A stretch of DNA of 64,000 nucleotides from the NCBI RefSeq assembly GCF_003473485.1, contig NC_053048.1:37692755-37756754 (forward strand). The letters run 5' to 3'. Under the pieces are notes generated by a model. It had not been told where the DNA came from. It saw nothing but the letters and a program-made list of their open reading frames with translations, and made no database searches. Source of the stretch: Medicago truncatula. Taxonomy: Eukaryota; Streptophyta; Magnoliopsida; Fabales; Fabaceae. Positions 13,519 to 32,074 of this stretch are shown here, one piece after another; position 1 is the first letter of the stretch, and each line of letters starts with the position of its first letter. Both the position numbers and the translations under genes were made by a program.

Positions 13519-14312
13519 CTAAAATTTTCCACGAGCAAACACCCCAAAGACAACTATTCCGAGTATTGGAACACACATTGCGGTGATTGAATTGTGCGAT
13601 TTAAGATGCATCAAAATAGCCCAGAAGATAAACACAACCCTCTGCACTCGGACGAAGGGTACACCAACAAGAATCATTATAGCAACGGCCCAAACAAACG
13701 CCATAAAACCAAAAAACCTGAGTGAGGACACCCATATTGGACCACGTTGGACCTTCATAAGTAATGGCTCGATCCACATGTCAAAGAAAAGGGAACCAAA
13801 TAAAATGGTCAAGACTACAACAAATGAAACATATTGTGCAATTTCCTCACGTTTGTGCTTAAATTTAGGATATGATCTTGGCATGGTTTCCTTGTACTTA
13901 TATGGATAATTACTACTAGTGGAGTTGTGTTGCAATTGTGAAGTTATTTTTCCATCCTTGGCTAATGGTTGTTTAAATTTGAAGTCAAGAAAGGGTTCAT
14001 TGTTATGTAGAGACATCTTCTTGTTCCATGTAATGCTGTTTATTTGCCCCTCTTTATTAACGCAAATATGGAACTTCAAATGGTATGTTGTAGGACACTC
14101 TACAAAGAGAACATTCTGCGGTGTATAGAAAGTTAGAAGGAGGATTAGAAAACTCATACAAAGAAATAAGTTGAGCAAATTACCTGGAATTTGGGAGGCT
14201 CCAAACCAAAATGAATCCTTCTACTATTACCCTTAGAAAGACAGATATAAAAAACTTCAATGAGTCCTTGGTTTTGTAGTTCTCCTCGTTTAAAAGATGT
14301 TTGGATCAAATT
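13519..14312 (-). CDS. Two-helix membrane protein, family member A (partial 5' end)
   Basis: Two exons are visible: 14312-14184 and 14115-13519, joined in phase 0 (CAG|GTAATT donor, ACCGCAG acceptor). The first begins at a splice acceptor (TTGCAG|AATTTG), and no upstream start exon was identified, so the N-terminus is missing from this model. The visible product is 241 residues. A soluble part contains SKGNSRRIHFGLEPPKF and VECPTTYHLKFHICVNK. It is followed by a conserved KHKREEIAQYVSFVVVLTIL stretch and two or three hydrophobic helices ending GVPFVRVQRVVFIFWAILMH. The C-terminal half matches gene C (28931-29556), and the first exon matches the B fragment (20028-20282). The family is unknown to me. 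It has no known enzymatic motif and probably sits in a membrane. Confidence 0.6.
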
Positions 14313-15090: not shown

Positions 15091-17160
15091 TGATGATGAC
15101 TTAGTTGCATCTAGTATGTGATCACAATTAGATAGAGTTACCCGTTAAATGAAGCCGCCCTATGGAAAGACCGCCATTAAGAGGAGATGGTTATCAACAA
15201 GACTTAAACTTCCTTTGAGAATGTTTTACGTTTTGTTTTGAGTCGAGAGAAAAGAGCTATCCGTTAGATGGAGCTACCACTAAGGGAAAGACCACTCTTT
15301 ATAGGAAAGATCTATCAACTGTTGGAACAAAATGTGTTTAAAATTAACCCTTGAGAGTTTTGATGATAACAAGGTATTAAAAATTGTCAATTGGATATGC
15401 TAATATTTGTTCAAGTGTACAGGACTATAGACAAAATTTGATATCTTAAAAGGTCTTTGAAGAACAATAAAGAGCAAATGAATCAACAAAAAGGAAGCTT
15501 AAAGCGTTTGAAGAAAACTGCTCCTGAAGACAAAGTGCTCCTGAAGTGGTGAAGCCATCAGAAGCACGTTCATCAGAAGCTGCAGTTCATCAGGAGATGC
15601 AACTTAAAGCTTCAAAGGTTGTTCAACGGATTTAATCTCGTCTAAGTATTGCAGAAGATTGGAAAAGTGAAGCAACAACTATTTTGAAAGGATTTGAAGG
15701 CATTGGATGCTTATTCTTCAAAGAGCGTTGACAAAATACAATTGTACGAAGTGTACAACCACTACCTCCACTACTCTGTTTTTGTCTCTGCTACAAGACA
15801 AGAAAAACAGCTCTGCCTGCAACAATGTTCCCTCACAATGGAAATGCATTTGAAATTGATCCTTCATAGGACAATAACTATATCAGGCAAAAGATCACTG
15901 GTGATTGATCAAAGCTTCAAACGACTCTATTTTGAATGCGCTGGCAATTCACAATGTATCTTTCACACCTCCATATAAAGGAGTGAAGACTCAGAGTTAC
16001 ATACAGAACAGTACCAAGAACTAAAAGTGCTGAAACTCTACTGAAATTGTTCTGCATTCAAAAGTTCACTTAGAATTTCTTATCAACTTTCATATCTTAG
16101 ATATTCTAAAGTCTTAAGATAATAATGATGATGACTTAGTTGCATCTATGTGATCACAATTAGATAGAGTTACCTGTTAAATGAAGTCGCCCTATGGAAA
16201 GACCGCCATTAAGAGGAGATGGCTATCAACAAGACTTAAACTTCCTTTGAGAATGTTTTACGTTTTTTTTTTTAGTCGAGAGAAAAGAGCTATCTGTTAG
16301 ATGGAGCTACCACTAAGGGAAAGACCACTCTTTATAGGAAAGATCTATCAACTGTTGGAACAAAATGTATTTAACATTAACCCTTGAGAGTTTTGATGAT
16401 AACAAGGTATTAAAAATTGTCAATTGAACATGTTAATATTTGTTCAAATGTACAGGACTATAGACAAAATTTGATATCTTAAAAGGTCTTTGAAGAACAA
16501 AAAAGAGCAAATGAGTCAACAAAAAGGAAGCTTAAAACGTCTGAAGAAAACTGCTCCTGAAGACAAAGTGCTCCTGAAGTGGTGACGTCATCAGAAGCAA
16601 GTTCATCAGAAGCTGCAGTTCATCAGGAGATGCAACTTAAAGCTTCAAAGGTTGTTCAACGGATTTAATCTCGTCTAAGTATTGTAGAAGATTGGAAAAG
16701 TGAAGCAACAACTATTTTGAAAGGATTTGAAGGCATTGGATGCTTGTTCCTCAAAGAGCGTTGACAAAGTACAATTGTACGAAGTGTACAACCACTACCT
16801 CCACTACTTTGTTTTTGTCTCAGCTACAAGACAAGAAAAACAGCTATGCCTGCAACAATGTTCCCTCAGAATGGGAATGCATTTGAAATTGATCCTTCAT
16901 AGGACAATAACTATATCAGGCAAAAGATCATTGGTGATTGATCAAAGCTTCAAACGACTCTATTTTGAATGTGTTGGCAATTCACAATGTCTCTTTCACA
17001 CCTCTATATAAAGGAGTGAAGACTCAGAGTTACTTATAGAACAATACCAATAATTAAAAGTGCTGAAACTCTACTGAAATTGTTCTGCATTCAAAAGTTC
17101 ACTTAGAATTTTTTTATCAACTTTCATATCTTAGATATTCTAGAGTCTTAAGAGTCTGTA
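15091..17160. repeat. Tandem duplication, about 1,035-base unit
   Basis: The unit beginning TGATGATGACTTAGTTGCAT at 15091 recurs at 16126 and stays highly similar to about 17160. The unit contains 230 bases of DNA left of the LTR plus the first 790 or so bases of the LTR, so the duplication happened after the LTR inserted. Frames 15694-15978 and 16727-17011 are the same non-coding segment in each copy, not genes. Confidence 0.9.
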
Positions 17161-19972: not shown

Positions 19973-20027
19973 GGTAATAATGAATCTAGAATGAGAACTC
20001 ATACAAAGCAATAAGTTGGCAACCTAC

Positions 20028-20282
20028 CAGGATATTGGAAGGCCTCAAACCAGAATGAATGGCCTTAATATTTCCTCCACTTGAACCCTTATTTTGTATA
20101 AGAACATCATCATCAATTTGCTTGCACAGAAGATATTCAATTTTGCTTCCTAAATTTTGAAGTTCATCCAAACAGAGGATTCGCTGGTTCACAACAGCTC
20201 CAAATATTTTCAGCTCATCAATTAAAGTCTTTATGCTCTCACAAAAAAATTTAGTCTCTATTTCCATCTTATCAAATTTCCC
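20028..20282 (-). pseudogene. Exon fragment of the membrane protein family, member B
   Basis: An 85-codon exon lies between a splice acceptor (AACAG|GGGAAATTT) and a donor (CCTG|GTAGGT). It encodes KFDKMEIETKFFCESIKTL and ends IHSGLRPSNIL, matching the exon-1 end of gene A in sequence and splice position. The intron sequence right after the donor also matches A. The next exon, which should carry the helices, is absent. Instead the DNA at 19981 runs into the Mutator-like element. Upstream, 20430-20720 resembles the first exon and intron of gene C (29390-29560), but no clean start codon is visible. The most likely reading is a gene truncated by transposon insertion or deletion, on the opposite strand to gene 1 and head-to-head with it. 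Confidence 0.6.
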
Positions 20283-21631
20283 CTGTTATCCATAAAAAAG
20301 AAATGCGTACATGTTGCACAGATTCAGCTTTATTTTATGTATCACTCCACAATTACAATAGTCAAGAATAATATATAAACATCCTAAGCTAGATTATGCT
20401 ACATCCTATATTGTTAGGGTTTATGAAAAGATTCACATAGCAGTTTCATAAATTTCAACATAAAAACTAGTAAAAATAAACATATAAAATTTCTACAGAA
20501 TCTTTAAAAGGTTGATGGTTTTATTATATTTTTTACATAGAGAAGAGAATAGGGAACTGGAATGGATGTGAATAATTTATCGTACCTAACAATCTTGAAC
20601 GAAGCTATTGAATAAGATGAATCTTAGAATGTTGATTTGAGGATGAAGCTGTGAGATTCCAAATATATTTGTCAGGTCAACTCAAGATGTCGTCTTCAAA
20701 CTTTTCCTGGGTTTTTGGAAGGGATATTAGAAGATGAAATATAGTAAAGGATTATGGATGATACATGGTCTTAAATTAGTGTGAAAACAAACAAGTAAGT
20801 CTCTTGTTTCAGTGTGAAAAACAAACTATTAAGAACACTAAAGTCAGTCAGCATGTAGAGAGGGAAATTTCGAGCAAGAGCAAAAGCAAGTACCTTTTCT
20901 TTTTGTTGATATGAAAAAAGAGATTATGAGGGACAGCAAAGATTCTGGGAAATTTACATGAAGAAACGCTTGTTCAAAAAAATAAAAGTTAGCTGAAGAA
21001 TTATAGGAAAGGAAAATGCTGATTTCCGTTGAATCCGGAATTAAAATTGTTGGGTCATAAGGGAAGCTTGAGGGACCGCCCCACAGAGGCTAACCACACT
21101 AGTAAGAGATAGGTCACACTCTTACCCAAAACCTTCCATCAATATATTTACAGGTCTTTCACTTATAAAGTGTTCAACTTTTTCCTGATGTGAGACATAT
21201 AACTCACACACAACAAAAATTACGCAAAATATTTTGCCAAGTATTGTTTAACCCCACCACGTCCACTTTTTATTTATTCTATTTCAGAAATTTCTGCGCC
21301 CCTTCGTAATTTTTTCTTCTTTTAGTATTCATTCTGAAAAGAGAAGAAACATCGCATATATTCCTTTAAGGGTGGAGGGGGAAGCGAGGAAGTTGTAGTA
21401 TTTTTTTAAACAAAAAGTTCAAGAGTACACACTGCACTGCAACAGCATGGTCATCACCACAACATTAATTAATTAATTAATTATTTACCTCGTTTTTTTA
21501 GTGTTGATATTCATGTGACTTGGCTGAAAAGAATGTTGCTATTTATTTTGCCAAGATTATTTATTCTTTATCATTGTATATCAATTCATAATATTCTAGT
21601 TTTTTTTTATACTTATAATATCTGATTACAG

Positions 21632-23292
21632 GTGATTGAATCTCCCAAACTTATTTTTGGAATTGATTTCAGCCAGAGCAATCAGTTGACAGGTTAGGCC
21701 ATATTTATAAATAGTTTTGTTGTAAACCAAGATTTTAATTTAAGCATTATGTTGGTTTCAGGAAAGTATTCGCTTATCAGACAAAGTTTGCATGACATTA
21801 GGAATGTTCCAAATTCGTGTGAAAAAGCAATATCCATTATTGGAAAAAAGTTCTCTCCATTTCTGGATGATAACTTGATTCCTTGTTTTGGATTTGGGGA
21901 TGGTATGTGTCTCTCTCGCTCTCTCTCTCTCAAATTTATCGCTCAGACGGTCACAACTCAGAAATTTGTGAATTTTTGTTCGTAATTTAAAATCAAAATG
22001 TGCTACGGCAGCATCAACAAGTGATCACGATGTCTTTAGTTTCTATCGAGACGAAAGATTTTGCAATGGACATGAAGAAATTTTGAGTCGGTATAGGGAA
22101 ATTCGTCCTAATATTCAACCTGCAGGTTATATTATATGTTGTTGTTGATTATTATAATTTTTGGAATTCATGTTATAGAGAGTGACCTAATCATACTTAT
22201 GTTTTTAACATCAGGCACTACATCCTTTGCACCTATCATTGAAATGGCTACGAAAATCGTTGATCAGAGTGGAGGCAAACACCATGTTTTGGTGATAATT
22301 TCAGATGGTCAGGTATATATTCTTTTCTCTATCCCTCCCTTATGTACATACGTACGTACGTATGTATGTATGTATGTATGAATACATGCATGGATGTATG
22401 TAGAGTTTTTTTTGAACAAATCACAAAGACCAGGAGAAATACTTGGTTAAGCACAATACTAAACATTACATGTTAGTCACACACCCTTAAAACTAAAAAA
22501 AAAAAGGATTATAGTGATTGATGTGACTATTATCTTTTAATTTTTTTGATTTATGTATATGTGAGTTTAAATTTGAGGTCTAAATGTTTGTGCCTACGTA
22601 AGACTGTCTCCAAAGATTGAATTGCTATGAAAACACAAGAGGTTAACGTGGTGGAACCTTTCCTCTCACCGTCAAAATAAGAGAGAAATATATTATCTCT
22701 CATCCAACCTTTATTTTTTTCTCTCACACATGCCAAAAAGGTTAACGTGGTGGAACCTCTCCTCTCACCGTCAAAATAAGAGAGAAACATATTATCTCTC
22801 ATCCAACCTTTATTTTTTCTCTCACACATGCCAAAAAAAAAAATGACACATTGTTTTTTTTCTCCACAAGAAATGAATCACACTCATATGCAAATCAATG
22901 CAAATACATACCACATGAATTAACATGTATAAAATAGATCATTCGCCTTTTAAAAAAATGGTTAAATATATTTTTGATTTCTATAAATATATTAACTTTT
23001 CGTTTTAATTTCTTTAAAAAAATTATTCGACTTTTAAACCTCAAAAAGTTTCACATCTTCACTTTTGATCACTACTTTTAAGTAAACTCATATGTACAAG
23101 GGAAAAGATTGGTAAACACCCTTTAAAGGGTGTACCTCCCATACACACGCTGACATGACACATTTCTAATTAAAAATTTAAAAATAAAACATAAAAAATT
23201 CATTCTCACTTCTCTTCCTCTCTAACGCAAACTCTCTCTTTTTCTCACTCAACGAGTCTCATCCTCTCTCTCACATTCAACTCTGCAGCCTC

Positions 23293-23342
<50 letters not shown>

Positions 23343-24344
23343 TCCTTGGATTAGATCCGTGGCAGTGGTACACGTAAACATTTGAAATTCTTGATCATTT
23401 CTAGTGGCAGCAGATTCAGATACAATATCCAAAAGGACCCATCTGCAACTATTCCAAATCTGATGAGTTTTCAGTTCTCATCTCTTCTCCCATGCCTGAA
23501 CGCTCCATCTCTTACATGAATTTTCAGATTTAAATCTGATGACCAGAAAAATAGTGGACGGCGGTTGGTGTGATGGACGACGGCGTCGACAGTGGTGGAG
23601 TGTGCGACGACGGTTGGTGTGTTGGATGGTGAGGAGAAGAAAGAGAAAAGAGGATGACAGTTGTTGACTGTGTTGGACAATTTTGTCCCCTTGTTTTTTT
23701 GAAATGGACAATTTTGTCCCCTTGAAGTGGTAGGATGGTGCATGCCACGTTAGGATGTATGGGTATAATTACTCTATGTATAATTCATAATCTTGAATAC
23801 ATTTAGCAGAAAAGTTTCTAATATTATAAAAATCTCTTAGAAAAAATATATTCTTTTTTAACAAAAACATGAATTAAATATGAATTATTATATTTTTGGC
23901 TGTTAAAATTTAATATTTATTTCATGTTCTGTTAAAAAATTCTAAAAAAATTTTTTTTGAAGAGATTTTAACAATATCCTACACAATTTCATTAAAAAAA
24001 TACACATGAGTTGACTTAAAAATAGAAACCAAAAGTTGAGATCGATATTTTATAAGGACTAAAAGTCAAAAGAAAATTTTAGACGCACTAAAACGAAAAA
24101 TTTATATATTTATAAGGACCAAAAACATATTTATCCTTAAAAATATAACATCCCCGTTAAATTGATTTCCATGTACATAACAAGATATATACTATACACA
24201 CAAATAAAAGTATCCATACCACATGAATTAACATATATACACTGATAAAAAAAAAAAATATATAGATTGATTAAGCGATCGCATGACAATAGCTTTGACA
24301 TAAGACAAGCTCGTCTGCGAACAAAGAGGACGTGAACATACTAC

Positions 24345-24383
<39 letters not shown>

Positions 24384-27300
24384 CTTTTTTAAGGAGTAAG
24401 TTAACAATATATACCCACTTGATTATTTACATTCACTTTTTTTAAGTTTTATCAAATTATTTTATACCTATATTGATAGTTATTTGAACTCACTTTCATC
24501 ATTCCAAAATGACACACAAGTTTTTTTTGGATAAACAAACATAGGAAAGTGAGTGTAATTAATAAAATGGATGTCACATATTTAAAGAAGAGTGGAGGTA
24601 AATTAGCAAAGTGAGTGTTAATAATTTAAAGAAACTTACAAAACTAACCCTCAACTACAACTTTTAAATAACAAAAGGTTGGTGGTTTTAGTCAAAGTCA
24701 AGTGGGTGTAGATTGTCAATCTAATCTTCAGTAATTTTATGTTGGTGTAAATTAGCAGTCTTAGATACACATATTCACACACATGAGATCTCTAGCGCTC
24801 GCAAAGTAGAAATCATATCTCTCTTGTAGGTTCTCTTACACAAACAAGAAAAAGTGCGACTCACACACAAATACAAAATCAGCTATTGAGTGAGAGAATA
24901 AGAGAGGGGATTGGACACCACGACACATCTAATGTTAAAGGTGTCCGTGTTTCATAAGTCTTACATGTATAATTTCCACTGGTTTCCACATATGCTGGTT
25001 AGATTCAAGTTTTATGGGTCAACATACAACCCAGTTTAACTTTATAACCACATGTCATCATTATAAGTTTATTTATAATCTCATAAGAAGGAAATAAATT
25101 TTAAACGAGAATCAGAAAATTTCGTTTTAAATTTTAGCGTTGGAGTATGAGATTCCCATTATGAAGGATGAAAAGTATCTGACACCATTTTTGGTGCCTC
25201 AACTTTTCTTTACTATCTTGGATTTGTTTTGATATAGTTGTAAAGGTGATAAAATGGATGGATTTGATGAATATAGATTTGGATCATAATAGATGGATCA
25301 AAAAAATTCATTAATCCATTATAATCTACTATATTTCTTGTGGAAAAAAAATCATCAAATTCATCCATTAAATATAATGTCCATCCAATTCATCCATTAC
25401 TAGATTTTACCATCCATCTAATAAAATGTGTTATTTTTTTAATTTGTTTCACATTAATATTTTGTTGATAAATTGGTGCAAAAAATAAACATATTCAGCC
25501 CAATATATATTTATGTATAAGCCCAAAATATTTTTTTAACCAAGCCCAAAACAAATTTTAAATAGTTAATAATTAAATATATATACACTAAAAGAAAAAA
25601 TTAAATATATAATAATCACCGGTGGTGCACTATCATTGACCGGCGACCACATCCGTTGACCGGCATTGACCATGGCGGTGGGCGGTGGTGGTTCGGTAAA
25701 AAATCCGGCGATATGTGGTTGTTCAGCACAGCCCACGGGGGTCGGCGGCGGAGCTCTGGTGTTGACCGGCCATGCCCCGACGTTGACCACCACCTATATT
25801 AAATTAATAATATTTAAATATTAAAAAATAAATTTTTTCTGTCAGTTTATTTAATAAATTAATTTTATAATTATTTAAATAAAAAAAGATTAATATTATT
25901 TGAAATTATGCATTGGATTTTTATTTTTTAAAGAGGTGATCCAATGAATTTTTAAAATAAGGTGGATGGATTAGATGGATATAGATCTCATGAATCATAT
26001 TGCTACCCATAATTATTTGTATGTAAACAATTTTTTTTATATATTTCTTCCTTATATAATTTTAAAAATTTCAGATAACAATAAATATGAGCAGAATCAA
26101 ACAAACAGGGAGTTTATTGTTAATTTTCACCAACCAAAGTTTTAACGACAAAGTGGAGATACTGTTGGTTCATTCCCCACCTGATAATTTGTTATGATTT
26201 GCTTCCGGAACATCTTATGCAATATATACATGACTTTTGTGCAGGTAATAAGACGTAATGACGCTCAACATGGGAGCCTTAGTTCACAAAAGCTTCATAC
26301 AGTGGATGCCATTGTTGAGGCCAGGTGAATATGTTGCAAGGAATTATTCTCAAAAATGTTGTATTTTTCAAATATCTTGTCTTATTTATCTGCTTAATTT
26401 GTCACAGAAAATTTCCTCTTTCAATCATATTGGTTGGTGTTGGAGATGGACCTTGGGACATGGTGAAGGAGTTTCAGGACAATATCAAAATGCAAACTAG
26501 GACCTTTCATAATTTTAAGGTAGATAATGTACGAAGCACGGACCCCTCTAGCATTAGGTGTGTCGCGGTGTCCGACACGTGTCAATGTTCACACTTGTAT
26601 GACACTCATATGACACGTGTCGGACTACCTCAAACTGGTATCCTAATTTATTTATTTTTGTATCGACACTTCTTGGGTCGGTGTCTGACACTTGTATGAC
26701 ACTCATACCACACATGTCGAACAACTCGAACAAGTGTCCCATTTTTCTTCTTCTTTGCTTTGACACGCCTATGTAGCAGTGTTAGTATCCTATGTTTTTT
26801 ACATTAGCGGTATCGACGAGTTCATGTGAGTGTCTGTGTCAGAGTCAGTGTTTCGTAGATCATGAATATTAATAGTTGTTCAAATGCCGTAAATGATTGG
26901 AATTCATTGCATAATCTCTTTGTGCATCTAGTTTGTGAATTTCACGGAAATTATGTCAAAGTCAAACAACATTTCTCCTTCACTAAAAGAGGCGGAAATT
27001 CTTCTTGCAATCAGGGAAATTCTTTTTCAGTATAAGGCCGCAAAAGAGCTTGGTCTACTAGGGTAAAATTTTGATTAATGGCCTCCAATATTATTCTCTT
27101 GCGTTTTTCAAATTCAAAATATGAGGTGTTAAGTTCATTTCTGACAAAAATTTGTTGATATCCTCACAGAGTTGCCCTCCCAACACCCTCAGCATCTAGG
27201 GGCACTTCAAAACCATATTATAGGTCAGCATCTTTTCCCAGTGCAAGTTCAAGACCTTATCAATCTGCTAGTTTTGAGGGGAGAGCACCTTTTTACCCCA

Positions 27301-28094
27301 ACGACAACAATCTAGCAAGCCCGAGTTCTACTTATTACAATAAGGTAAACTATAAAATAGGGAATATCTCGAGCTCCTTAGTTTTGATGGCATGCCACAT
27401 AGGAATGCTGATATTATTCTGAAACTACTTTGATTCGATATTTCATGTTTTTCTTCAGGCAAAAAGAGAATCTGGTCTTCCTTTATCCTTGAAAAAATTA
27501 GGAAACACACGGGAAAAGAAATCGTTGACATGGAAGGCGTTTATAAGTCACGCATGTGACAGTGTGCTTGACATTCCTCCCAAGTATCACTGGGCCTTAC
27601 TGCTGATATGTGTTAGTTTCCTCAGTTATCAAGCAAAAAACACAACTGCTCCATTTGAATATTTCCAACTGGAAAAAACAATTAAGGCACCACCACAAAC
27701 ACTAGTACTTGCCTTTGGGGAAGCATTTGAAGTATTCTTTCCAGAAATAACACACATCACAAAGTTCATGTTGTGTTATTTTCTGACTCTGATGTTGGTT
27801 TGTTCACTACAACTTGGACTGCAGATTTTCTGTATACTACTAATAATTTCTGCACCCCTTTTTTACTTTCCCGAGCTGGTTCGCAGGGCTTCAAAGGTTG
27901 GTGTTGATTGTGGATTGTTCGAGTTGCCTCTAATATGGTTTGCAACTTTAGGGGCCGTTGGGCTTTCCCTTATTTGTGGGATATTGACATTACTATTAGC
28001 TTACTTGAGCTGGAGGTTCCTATCTAAAGGGAAACAAAATGTTGAAGATGTTGATGTTAGTTTAGAGGAATTGTCGGAGATTTTACAAGTATAG
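21632..28094 (+). CDS. RGLG/copine-type vWA domain fused to a multi-pass membrane module (gene 1)
   Basis: Nine exons keep frame: 21632-21692, 21762-21902, 22012-22125, 22215-22312, 26245-26324, 26408-26519, 26932-27062, 27170-27344, 27459-28094, giving 515 residues plus a missing 5' end (no start exon found upstream). Visible residues 7-215 form the vWA domain of plant RGLG/copine proteins: [47 protein letters not shown]. The metal site looks intact (Asp, Ser, Ser of DFSQS; Thr of TTSFAP; Asp of ISDGQ). After a Ser/Pro-rich linker (245-304), where RGLG proteins carry a C3HC4 RING finger, this protein has no RING. It has about four or five hydrophobic helices (near 349-362, 405-420, 425-441, 461-491) and an acidic tail. 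Intron 4 is 3.9 kb and full of repeats. The role is unknown; membrane-anchored protein binding is inferred. Confidence 0.75.
22641..22836. repeat. Two-copy tandem repeat, 99-base period
   Basis: GGTTAACGTGGTGGAACCT and the next 80 bases are repeated almost exactly at 22641 and 22740, inside intron 4 of gene 1. The minus-strand frame over it is a by-product of the repeat. Confidence 0.9.
22961..24140. mobile_element. Non-autonomous DNA element in intron 4 of gene 1
   Basis: The left end GTTAAATATATTTTTGATTT is matched in reverse by GACCAAAAACATATTTATCC at the right, with further inward pairing (for example the ACATGAGTTGACTTAAAA region against TTTAAGTAAACTCATATG). The centre (23100-23765) is a more GC-rich insert with a (CT)n tract. 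It is related by its ends to the element at 9899-10955. Confidence 0.6.
23296..23339. repeat. (CT)n microsatellite
   Basis: About 21 CT units inside the intronic element of gene 1. Confidence 0.95.
24347..24380. repeat. (AT)n microsatellite
   Basis: About 17 AT units in intron 4 of gene 1. Confidence 0.95.
25240..26010. repeat. Repeat-derived segment with a GC-rich core
   Basis: Iterated GATGGAT/ATCCATC motifs on both sides (25250-25430 and 25930-26000) frame AT-rich DNA. Inside lies an abrupt 180-base GC-rich island (25615-25800) with repeated TTGACCGGC-type words. It is probably an old transposon in intron 4 of gene 1. No protein is recognised; the frame at 25566-25793 is low complexity. 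Confidence 0.45.
26535..26870. repeat. GTGTCCGACACGTGTC-type repeat
   Basis: A stretch rich in 'GTGTC', 'GACAC' and 'CACTTGTATGACACTCAT' words occurs twice internally, within intron 6 of gene 1. Similar word composition appears near 48480-48560 and 61490-61625 in introns of other genes. Confidence 0.55.
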
Positions 28095-28930: not shown

Positions 28931-29556
28931 TTACTCTAATTTAAGATGCATCAAAATGGCCCAAAAGACGAGTACAACACTCTGCACACGGATGAATGGT
29001 ACACCAACAAGAATCATGATTGCAACGGCCCAAACAAACACCATAAAACCAAAAAGCCCTAGCAAGGAGTCCCATATGGAAACACTTTGGACCATCACAT
29101 GTGGTGGCTTGATCCACAAGTCAAGGAAAAGACAACAGAAAATAATGCTCAAGACTACAACAAATGAAACATGTTGTGCAATTTCCTTACGTTTCTGCTG
29201 AAATATAGGATATGATTTAGGAATGGTTTCCTTGTGGTTCTTATGGAAAAATGACTTCAGGTAATGAGATTCCTCTCCGAGGAGCTGTGAAAAAATGACC
29301 ACAATGTAAAAGAGCACAATGAAGAAAAGCAAAGTAAAAAATGTATGAAAAAGAAACGAAGACAATAGTAATATCTTTTAGAAATGATAAAACTCATACC
29401 AGTTTCATAAATTTCAGCATAAAAGCTTGTAAAATGACATGCTAAGAACTGATAAAAGAAAACTAGAAATGGATGTGTATAACGTACCGAAACATTTTTC
29501 TCATTCGAACTCATCTTATCGTCTTCAAACTTTCCCTGCGGAATTTGAACAGCCAT
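28931..29556 (-). CDS. Two-helix membrane protein, family member C
   Basis: Two exons, 29556-29488 and 29284-28931, joined in phase 0 (GTTTCG|GTACGT donor, TTCACAG acceptor), give 140 residues from an ATG at 29556. The N-terminus is MAVQIPQGKFEDDKMSS; the second exon has ETIPKSYPIFQQKRKEIAQ. Hydrophobic helices follow (SFVVVLSIIFCCLFLDLWI and LFGFMVFVWAVAIMILVG), then VPFIRVQSVVLVFWAILMH. It is clearly homologous to gene A over the C-terminal 100 residues, but lacks the middle exon seen in A and B. The start lies about 60 bases from the first recognisable codons of gene 2 on the other strand. No known functional motif. I believe it is coding because splice phase and protein conservation with A agree. 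Confidence 0.65.
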
Positions 29557-29613: not shown

Positions 29614-32074
29614 AAAAGTTTAAATCCCTATGAACAAGCAATATCCATTATTGGGAAAACCTTGGCTCCATTTGCCGAGGATAACTTGATTCCTTGTTTT
29701 GGATTTGGGGATTCATCAACACATGATCAAGAAGTCTTCGGTTTGTATCCGGATGAAAGACTTTGCAATGGATTTGAAGAAGTTTTGAGTCGGTATAGGG
29801 AAATTGTTCCTAATATTCGACTTGCAGGCCCTAGATCCTTTGCACACATTGTTAAAACGGCCACGGCCATTGTTGAGCGGAGTGGAGGCCAATACCATCA
29901 TGTTTTGATGATACTTGCAAATGGTCAGGTAAGGTATTCTATTATTTATTTATACAGCAGAAAGACTCGATTGCTTCTTACCGAGTTGTTTCTCTCTTTA
30001 AATCTAACGGTATCTACTACTGCAGTACTATACTGCAACTGTAGAAAGATCCAAGTTCGGATGTTGGTGGTAGAACTAATCTTAAGAAGTTGGCGCAGGT
30101 AACAAGAACTCGACATGGAAGGCTTAGTCCACAAGAGAGAAAAACAATGGATGCCATTGTTGAGGCCAGGTGATTATTCTCAATAATAAATGTTGTAACT
30201 TTACAAACATCTTGTCTTATTTATCTGCCTACTTTGTTGCCACAGTAAATTTCCTCTATCAATCATATTGGTTGGTGTTGGAGATGGACCTTGGGACAAG
30301 ATGAAGGAGTTTTGTGACAATATTCCAACTAAGGGCCTTTGATAATTTTCAGGTAGATAATGAATATTGATTTAATACTTGTTAAATGTTGCAAAATAAT
30401 TGAAATTCATCCCCTGAATTGTTGTGAAATCTCTTTAGTTTGTGAATTTCGCGGAAATCATGTCAAACAACATTTCTCTTACACGAAAAGAGGCAGCATT
30501 TGCTCTCGAAGCATTCATGAAAATCCCTTCTCAGTATAAGTATAAGGCCGCAGCAGCGCTTGGTCTACTAGGGTAAGATTATGATTCATTACCTTCAGTG
30601 TTATTCTCTATTATTTTTCATATTGAATAAAAAAAGAGTCTCAAGTTCATTTCTGTCAAAAATAATTGTTAATATTTGTGCTTGTTATTTATCTCAAAAC
30701 AGTAGTCCAAAGGCCAATGCTCCTAGGAGAGTTTCCCTCCCAACACCCCGTTATGGTTCAGCATATTTGGGCAGTCCAAGTTCTACTTATGACAATCAGG
30801 TACAGCCTACAAAGTGTTTCTAATAGAAATGTGTCATGTTCTTGATTGGGTGCAAACATTAATGTTACAATAAATTGCTTGAATTATATGAATATATGTT
30901 GTTTAGTACTAAGGCTGGTTTGGCGGTGTTCCGTGAACTTTGCTTAGTTGGTATGGACATTGTATTATAATACCAAGATTATTGAGAAGGATGTGAGTTT
31001 GCTTACTCTTCTGTTTCTTCACACTATACCATGTTGAAAAACATATATACTACAGTTAAATAAAGAAAAAAAATATCTAGAGAAAGATTAATTATTTCAA
31101 ATTGATAAAATAAGGAAATGTGACTATAATGAGTGTAGAATATACTAACCAACTTTATATAATGATATTATTTCGAAAAATAAAAAAATTTATAGAATGG
31201 ATATCTCATTAAAAAAAAATATTATTTGAATGGCGGTAAATTAGTCCATTTGTAGGTATTGTGTAAATTATTTTTGCATTTAATTTTTTTTTAGGGACTT
31301 TGTCAAAGACTAAATGTTGTATTTCAAATTAGCATTTAAAAAACTTACTATCTGTAGACTATTTTAAAGAAAGAACTAAACATGGTTTCATTTTAAAATA
31401 CTATTGTGAAACTACATTGATTGATTGTATATTTCATGCTTTACTTCAGGGTACGTAATAGAGAAAATGTTCTTCCTTTATCCTGGAAGGATTTAAGAGC
31501 ATCGTCTTTGACCTGGAACGATTTTATACATTACACACGTGACAGTGTAGTTAACATTCCTCCAAAATATCATGGGGCCTTACTCATACTGTGTGGTAGT
31601 TTCCTTGGTTATCAAGCAAAAAGCACAACTGCTCCATTTGAATTTCGATTCAAATATTCAACTAATGCACCTCAATCACTAGTACTTCCATTTGGGGAAG
31701 CATTTAAAGCATTCTTTCCAGAAATGACACAAATAGCAAAGTTCATTTTGTGTTATTTTCTGACATTGATGTTGGTTGTTCCACTACAACCTGGATTACA
31801 AATATTTTGTATGCTACTATTGATTTCTGCACCCTTTTTTTACTTCCCCGAGCTGGTTCGCAAGGCTTCAGTTTCAGGGGTTGATGTGGCATGTGGTGGA
31901 ACATTCAAGTTGCCTTTGATTGGGTTTGCAACTTTAGGGGCTGTTGGCCTTTCCCTCATTTGTGGTTTAGTGACATTGCTAATGGTTTATTTAAGCTGGA
32001 GGTTCTTATATAAAGGGAAATCAAGAGTTAGGGGAATTGAGGTTAGTCTTGATGATTTGTGTGAGATAGAATAA
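29614..32074 (+). pseudogene. Decayed paralogue of gene 1 (gene 2)
   Basis: Homology to gene 1 starts inside its exon 2, so the first MIDAS exon is missing and no in-frame ATG precedes the domain. Exons: to 29928 (gene 1 exons 2-4 fused without introns), 30099-30169, 30246-30352, 30439-30572, 30703-30799, 31450-32074. Exon 30246-30352 has one extra base compared with gene 1 and the family motif, giving a stop at CTT TGA just after the VGVGDGPWD motif. The last exon is also one base out of phase at its only good acceptor. MIDAS residues are replaced (TSFAP to RSFAH, SDGQ to ANGQ). Even so, the membrane module (31450-32074, about 208 codons) is open and well conserved, so a short membrane protein could still be made. 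It is a pseudogene by sequence; expression is unknown. Confidence 0.75.
30930..31030 (+). mobile_element. SINE-like fragment in the last intron of gene 2
   Basis: The A-box-like CGTGAACTTTGCTTAGTTGG resembles the head of the SINE at 9055. The B box is degenerate and there is no clear tail. Low-confidence remnant. Confidence 0.35.

What the first reader, a model, noticed from the sequence alone, without database searches (positions are those of the whole stretch)
21632..28094. RGLG/copine vWA domain fused to a multi-pass membrane module instead of a RING finger
The nine-exon reading frame is open throughout. It starts with a vWA domain that matches plant RGLG ubiquitin ligases ([18 protein letters not shown]) with all three MIDAS elements kept. 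Where RGLG proteins end in a C3HC4 RING, this one has a roughly 210-residue module with four or five hydrophobic helices. That would turn a soluble or myristoylated ligase into an integral membrane metal-dependent binding protein. I know of no described plant protein with this layout. Gene 2 carries the same module, so the fusion predates their duplication.
Basis: partly seen in the sequence, partly recalled or inferred. Interest (0 to 1): 0.8.

Follow-up and report, generated by a model that had tools for sequence, protein, structure and literature searches.

The report
RGLG fragment fused to membrane exon
In a legume-like plant genome, part of a ubiquitin-ligase gene was copied without its start exon and without its ligase (RING) exons and can splice, in frame, onto an exon for an unknown membrane segment, giving a young chimeric gene that is perhaps a membrane-tethered decoy or else a gene on its way out.

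Summary
The nine exons are real: canonical GT-AG introns, one open frame of 515 codons, an RGLG-type copine/vWA domain (PF07002 2.9e-50; RGLG1 crystal constructs 4e-91), then a 211-residue hydrophobic exon without Pfam or NCBIfam match. The window's 430 Mb genome holds the likely parent, an intact RGLG at C6:7.65 Mb (L018). Gene 1 is a DNA copy that begins inside the parent's intron 1; in gene 2 similarity ends inside the intron before the RING exons. So both the start-codon exon and the RING were left behind, and I found no replacement start exon. The membrane exon was found only twice in the genome, both here. Selection signals are mixed: gene 1's exonic indels are all multiples of three (9 of 9; introns 2 of 15), so the frame was kept, but its vWA changes at a near-neutral rate. 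Gene 2 is broken (5' end gone, MIDAS lost, frameshift, linker-module join out of frame), though its membrane exon stays open (module dN/dS 0.50). Best reading: a young exon-shuffled chimera that, if expressed, is a RING-less, membrane-anchored vWA protein. Function is plausible, not shown.

The parts
21490..21631 (+). remnant of the parent's intron 1; 5' breakpoint of the RGLG-derived segment near 21490 (clear similarity from 21542)
   Evidence: alignment to L018 intron 1; no similarity to L018 exon 1 found
21632..21692 (+). gene 1 exon 1 of the finding (= RGLG exon 2), first MIDAS motif DFSQS, 24-base in-frame deletion against L018
21762..21902 (+). gene 1 vWA exon (= RGLG exon 3)
22012..22125 (+). 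gene 1 vWA exon (= RGLG exon 4)
22215..22312 (+). gene 1 vWA exon (= RGLG exon 5), MIDAS Thr and Asp
22313..26244 (+). 3.9 kb intron with internal repeats; the same intron is 354 bases in L018
26245..26324 (+). gene 1 vWA exon (= RGLG exon 6)
26408..26519 (+). gene 1 vWA exon (= RGLG exon 7), VGVGDGPWD, 6-base in-frame insertion
26932..27062 (+). gene 1 vWA exon (= RGLG exon 8), in-frame indels of 3 and 6
27170..27344 (+). gene 1 linker exon (= RGLG exon 9), Ser/Pro-rich, matches the L018 linker up to SSTYENQ, after which L018 splices to its RING exons
27459..28094 (+). gene 1 membrane exon (211 residues and stop), orphan
29622..29928 (+). gene 2: RGLG exons 3 (part), 4 and 5 fused without introns; first MIDAS motif absent, Thr to Arg, Asp to Asn
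30099..30169 (+). gene 2 exon = RGLG exon 6, 9-base in-frame deletion
30246..30352 (+). gene 2 exon = RGLG exon 7, one-base frameshift
30439..30572 (+). gene 2 exon = RGLG exon 8, 6-base in-frame insertion
30703..30799 (+). gene 2 linker exon (= RGLG exon 9), 135-base in-frame deletion; similarity to L018 runs on to 30904, inside the parent's intron 9 (3' breakpoint)
31450..32074 (+). gene 2 membrane exon, open, 68% identical to gene 1; out of frame with the linker if the consensus donor is used

Best explanation
Gene 1 is a young chimeric gene made by exon shuffling at the DNA level. A segment of an RGLG ubiquitin-ligase gene, exons 2-9, from inside intron 1 to inside intron 9, was copied next to an exon for an unknown membrane segment. 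Both bordering introns are phase 0, so the segment can sit between other exons without breaking the frame. The copy left behind the parent's exon 1 (start codon, N-terminal S region opening MGGQSS) and both RING exons. The frame was kept open afterwards. If transcribed with some upstream start exon, the product is a vWA domain plus linker held in a membrane by 3-5 C-terminal hydrophobic spans, without a RING. Most likely role if any (inferred): a membrane-held, ligase-dead partner or decoy that binds some RGLG clients or RGLG itself. Gene 2 is a decayed sister.
For: Intact parent L018 has the same intron positions and phases, a linker ending SSTYENQ and then RING exons. In the two introns compared, gene 1 and gene 2 are closer to L018 (69-81%) than to L019 (52-64%). 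Similarity begins inside L018 intron 1 for gene 1 and ends inside L018 intron 9 for gene 2. In-frame indels 9 of 9 in the eight RGLG-derived exons of gene 1 against 2 of 15 in five introns, p 4e-5; without the linker 4 of 4, p 0.004. Pairwise g1-L018 dN/dS 0.60 (0.38-0.94). Exon 9 open in both genes, dN/dS 0.50, bootstrap 0.33-0.75. All eight donors of gene 1 score positively, 1.9-4.7, in a donor matrix of recalled frequencies.
Against: No start exon found. Changes private to gene 1's vWA are near neutral (N/S 0.79 or 0.95 by choice of reference, against 0.11 on the L018 branch). With the two looser of four other gap settings the indel contrast weakens to p 0.046 and 0.011. Five of the nine exonic indels lie in a repetitive linker where in-frame slips may come easily. 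Zero stops in exons 3-5 occurs in 19-28% of neutral simulations. The vWA tree does not place gene 1 with L018. The 3' edge of the copied block is not seen in gene 1 itself. No transcript data.
Confidence: 0.6

Rival explanations
1. Both genes are pseudogenes: the RGLG fragment was dead on arrival (no start exon), gene 1 simply has not yet picked up a stop, and gene 2 already has.
For: No start exon; near-neutral N/S in gene 1 and gene 2 vWA; gene 2 truncated, frameshifted, MIDAS lost; zero stops in exons 3-5 alone is not surprising.
Against: In-frame indels 9 of 9 against 2 of 15 in introns; eight canonical introns; g1-L018 dN/dS 0.60 with interval 0.38-0.94 (0.61, 0.39-1.04, on the smaller set shared with gene 2); module dN/dS 0.50.
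Confidence: 0.27
2. Two separate genes: the membrane exon belongs to its own small gene, and the RGLG fragment upstream is an unrelated remnant.
For: The module is constrained between the copies while the vWA of gene 2 is broken and its linker-module join is out of frame with the consensus donor; synonymous divergence of the module (0.43) exceeds that of the vWA (0.17). Gene 2's module ORF has an ATG just upstream of the acceptor.
Against: Gene 1's module ORF has no ATG before residue 104 of the module (residue 408 of the joined product); its linker donor and module acceptor are canonical and in phase; linker indels in gene 1 are in frame up to the join.
Confidence: 0.1
3. The gene is a full RGLG whose start and RING exons lie elsewhere and are spliced in from a distance.
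For: None found.
Against: Similarity to the parent stops inside intron 1 (gene 1) and inside intron 9 (gene 2); RING and exon 1 probes found nothing convincing in the window (best E 0.40 and 0.83) or, at E 0.01, in the two 10 kb flanks.
Confidence: 0.03

Closest known systems
RGLG ubiquitin ligases (Arabidopsis RGLG1-5; here L018 and L019)
   Same: copine-type vWA domain along its whole length but for a short deletion at its start, linker, intron positions and phases
   Different: no start exon or myristoylation signal found, no RING exons, added membrane exon, fast-evolving vWA
Copines / BONZAI1
   Same: vWA domain of the copine type, Pfam PF07002; weaker match to BON1 structures (3.7e-8)
   Different: no C2 domain found in the nine exons by Pfam; membrane spans instead of C2-mediated lipid binding
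Exon-shuffled chimeric plant genes in general (recalled)
   Same: partial gene copy bounded by same-phase introns joined to an unrelated exon
   Different: this combination (RGLG vWA with an orphan membrane exon) did not turn up in the literature searches made here

Membership tests
RGLG E3 ligases | copine/vWA domain of RGLG type | tested here: met
   PF07002 2.9e-50; RGLG1 constructs 4e-91 over residues 2-250
RGLG E3 ligases | C-terminal RING finger | tested here: not met
   none in the frame, none convincing in the window; RING found in 10 of the 13 fetched RGLG-type stretches and, for L019, in the adjoining L022; not for L011 or L014
RGLG E3 ligases | N-terminal region with myristoylation start | tested here: not met
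   exon 1 of L018 (MGGQSSKE...) has no counterpart in the window or, at E 0.01, in the 10 kb flanks; a different start exon further off is not excluded; RGLG1 myristoylation from passages of PMC9788111
RGLG E3 ligases | shared intron positions and linker | tested here: met
   L018 comparison
RGLG E3 ligases | ubiquitin-ligase activity | not testable with these tools
   no RING, so none expected
Copines (C2-C2-vWA) | two C2 domains | tested here: not met
   Pfam reported only PF07002 at E up to 1 in the nine exons; an unknown upstream exon was not tested
Metal-binding vWA (MIDAS) | DxSxS, Thr, Asp present (recalled definition) | tested here: met
   sequence of gene 1; gene 2 lacks all three
Integral membrane proteins | hydrophobic spans | tested here: met
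   two blocks, residues 401-446 and 455-493, at KD 1.6 or more; topology not settled, model pLDDT 37

The most novel reading that the evidence does not exclude
A lineage-specific integral-membrane protein with a working metal-binding RGLG vWA domain and no RING, acting as a membrane-tethered, ligase-dead competitor of RGLG ligases, created by copying exons 2-9 of an RGLG gene in front of an orphan membrane exon.
Probability: 0.22. Interest if true: 0.6.

Novelty: new variant of a known kind. Interest (0 to 1): 0.42.

Why it matters
It is a traceable case of exon shuffling in a plant: the likely parent gene, a breakpoint in each of two same-phase introns (one seen in gene 1, one in gene 2), and a sister copy in decay are all in one genome. 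If expressed, it would show how a lipid-anchored ubiquitin ligase can be turned into a RING-less membrane protein, a natural dominant-negative design in a family that tunes ABA and immune signalling.

Tried and rejected
Start exon: probes made from recalled RGLG N-terminal letters, then the real L018 exon 1, found nothing convincing. In one search the best score upstream of gene 1 was 26 against shuffled maxima of 21-42; a score of 40 (and one of 34) with the longer recalled probe in 28.1-29.7 kb was set aside as spurious without shuffles for that region. A RING spliced in from nearby: not found (sees only an unsplit RING). Module as a member of a known family: Pfam gave only sub-threshold matches (best E 0.1), NCBIfam none; viral contigs and plasmids gave no relative, as expected for a plant. 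Module related to the minus-strand membrane ORF: BLASTP E 8.8. AlphaFold of the module: pLDDT 37, so no fold search was made. Tree of vWA proteins: gene 2 groups with L018 (support 77), but gene 1 sits on a long branch and is not placed with L018; parentage of gene 1 rests on its introns and linker, not on that tree. Indel test: two introns of gene 1 that hold large insertions (22313-26244 and 26520-26931) were left out, and gaps at the ends of an alignment were not counted. Under four other gap settings the counts were 7 of 12, 8 of 10, 9 of 9 and 9 of 9 in exons against 3 of 17, 3 of 14, 2 of 13 and 2 of 13 in introns. A genome search with gene 2's module did not complete, so 'found only twice' rests on one search with gene 1's module that scored 3 candidates; a 43%-identical 77-residue match found in another search suggests that such a search can see diverged copies, but short or very diverged ones may be missed. 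The other copine hits, on C1, C7 and C8, were taken as BONZAI-like from their letters and not studied. No other legume genome could be searched. Paper searches are limited to openly licensed PMC papers; passages of PMC9788111, PMC10397244 and PMC6118397 were seen, the rest only as search listings with abstract openings.
Full report
What is there. Joined, they give 516 codons ending in a stop, with GT-AG at all eight introns and donors scoring 1.9-4.7 in a donor matrix of recalled frequencies. Residues 29-243 match Pfam Copine, PF07002, at 2.9e-50 (with a typed version that had one residue too many at the linker). Residues 2-250 match RGLG1 crystal constructs at 4e-91; RGLG2 and RGLG5 constructs follow (7.5e-90, 2.6e-84) and BONZAI1 gives 3.7e-8. 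The three MIDAS elements (recalled definition) are kept in gene 1. One Asp that is Ala in two RGLG1 constructs (the first D of EFDDN, seen in the alignments) is Gln here.

The membrane exon. Exon 9 (27459-28094) has no Pfam or NCBIfam match above threshold. A Kyte-Doolittle scan finds two hydrophobic blocks, residues 401-446 and 455-493; a possible third is weaker. AlphaFold on the two available sequences failed (pLDDT 37). A search of the whole genome gave two matches, gene 1 and gene 2 of this window (3 candidates scored). Between the two copies dN/dS is 0.50 (bootstrap 0.33-0.75), and both frames are open although about 4.3 stops would be expected after that many random changes (chance of none 0.012; 0.07 if half the changes are counted).

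The parent. The window lies at C7:37692755-37756754 of a 430 Mb genome with 42 contigs; this fits Medicago truncatula, which is my recollection, not a tool result. I fetched 13 stretches that I judged RGLG-type among the copine hits. RING matches were found in 10 of them, and for L019 in the adjoining stretch L022; L011 and L014 gave none. L018 (C6:7646000-7652000) is an intact RGLG: an exon 1 opening MGGQSSKE and ending NSIDE, seven vWA exons, a linker exon ending SSTYENQ, then two RING exons. In this numbering gene 1's exons 1-8 are RGLG exons 2-9; borders and phases agree, with four exons of the same length and the other four differing by multiples of three. In two introns compared (the parent's introns 6 and 8), gene 1 and gene 2 are 69-81% identical to L018 but 52-64% to the sister gene L019 (the L019 intron 8 piece is approximate). 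The vWA protein tree does not place gene 1 with L018, where gene 1 has a long branch; I rely on introns and linker.

How the chimera arose. Similarity of gene 1 to L018 begins about 140 bases before the first vWA exon, inside L018's intron 1 (clear from 21542, traceable to about 21490). Similarity of gene 2 to L018 runs through the linker and ends at 30904, inside L018's intron 9, before the RING exons. In gene 1 itself the 3' edge is not seen: its linker-module intron is only 114 bases long and its last 48 match gene 2. The copied block is therefore exons 2-9, between two phase-0 introns. Left behind are the start-codon exon at one end and the RING at the other. Upstream of gene 1, at 21048-21209, lies a dispersed repeat with 50 other matches in the genome.

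Is it alive. For: in the eight RGLG-derived exons of gene 1, 9 of 9 indels against L018 are multiples of three, in five introns 2 of 15 (p 4e-5); leaving out the repetitive linker, 4 of 4 (p 0.004) (two introns with large insertions and terminal gaps left out). With four other gap settings the contrast gives p 0.046, 0.011, 0.0002 and 0.0002. Pairwise gene 1-L018 dN/dS is 0.60 (0.38-0.94) and 0.53 in exons 3-5. Against: changes private to gene 1's vWA run at N/S 0.79 (where L018 and L019 agree) or 0.95 (where L018 and gene 2 agree), not distinguishable from neutral (p 0.61, 0.85), while the L018 branch shows 0.11 (p 0.002); gene 2 gives 0.61 and 2.33 (p 0.15, 0.39). Zero stops in exons 3-5 is not remarkable (chance 0.19-0.28). 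No start exon was found: a scan of 19-21.6 kb gave no ATG exon with a phase-0 donor above 3, and a laxer scan of 15-21.6 kb gave four candidates of 14-21 codons. If translation begins at the first internal Met, residue 116, the first MIDAS motif is lost.

Gene 2. Its similarity starts inside RGLG exon 3. It has lost introns 3 and 4 exactly (exons 3-5 are fused, 87-94% identical to L018), lacks the first MIDAS motif, has Arg for Thr and Asn for Asp at the others, carries a one-base frameshift in its exon 7, and its linker is out of frame with the module if the consensus donor is used; a weak donor 15 bases downstream (score -1.9) would be in phase. Its other indels against L018 are in frame (4 of 5), so it may have decayed recently. 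The module's synonymous divergence between the genes (0.43) is higher than that of the vWA (0.17; p 0.0017) and than gene 2-L018 (0.21; p 0.008), less clearly than gene 1-L018 (0.27; p 0.08), and about that of L018-L019 (0.48; p 0.61). Either the modules were duplicated before the RGLG block arrived, or gene conversion has refreshed the vWA part.

How it would work. Shown: sequence, open exon frame, absence of a RING in the frame and of the parent's start exon nearby. From papers (passages only): RGLG1 is myristoylated at the plasma membrane and moves to the nucleus when myristoylation falls (PMC9788111); for RGLG2, the N-terminal S region and the vWA (C) region together bind BIK1, neither alone (PMC10397244). 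Inferred: without RING there is no ligase activity; with C-terminal spans the vWA would be fixed at a membrane; without the S region, binding of some clients would be weakened. A membrane-held decoy or partner is the likeliest function if there is one; a gene in decay is the main rival.

Novelty. RGLGs, copines and exon shuffling are known. The combination did not turn up in eight searches of the open PMC library, which does not show that annotation databases lack it. I rate it a new variant of a known kind, moderately interesting.

Noticed in passing
window 28934-29377 (-), 13519-14220 (-), 19989-20285 (-): A second orphan membrane-protein family on the minus strand alternates with the chimeric genes: two good copies here and one broken copy about 200 kb away (L030) were the only three matches in the genome search. 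The 19989-20285 ORF is linked to them only by short DNA repeats; its own search did not complete.
   Followed up: partly
L014 (C6:42298000-42304000) with L023: Another RGLG copy keeps its vWA exons, but its similarity to L010 ends about 115 bases before the place of L010's RING and no RING was found in the next 8 kb; a reverse-transcriptase-like ORF lies further on (label from reading, not a search).
   Followed up: partly
window 29622-29928: Exact loss of two neighbouring introns in gene 2, while later introns are kept; this looks like conversion by a reverse-transcribed RGLG message (inference).
   Followed up: partly
window 21048-21209: Dispersed repeat of about 160-180 bases with 50 other matches, several in pairs about 250-520 bases apart, like short LTR pairs.
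   Followed up: no
window 15115-17153: Tandem duplication of about 1.03 kb, 95-97% identical in the parts compared.
   Followed up: no
C2:32.55-32.62 Mb and C6:42.27-42.30 Mb: Two RGLG clusters that look like copies of each other (L010 and L014 are 91-94% identical).
   Followed up: no
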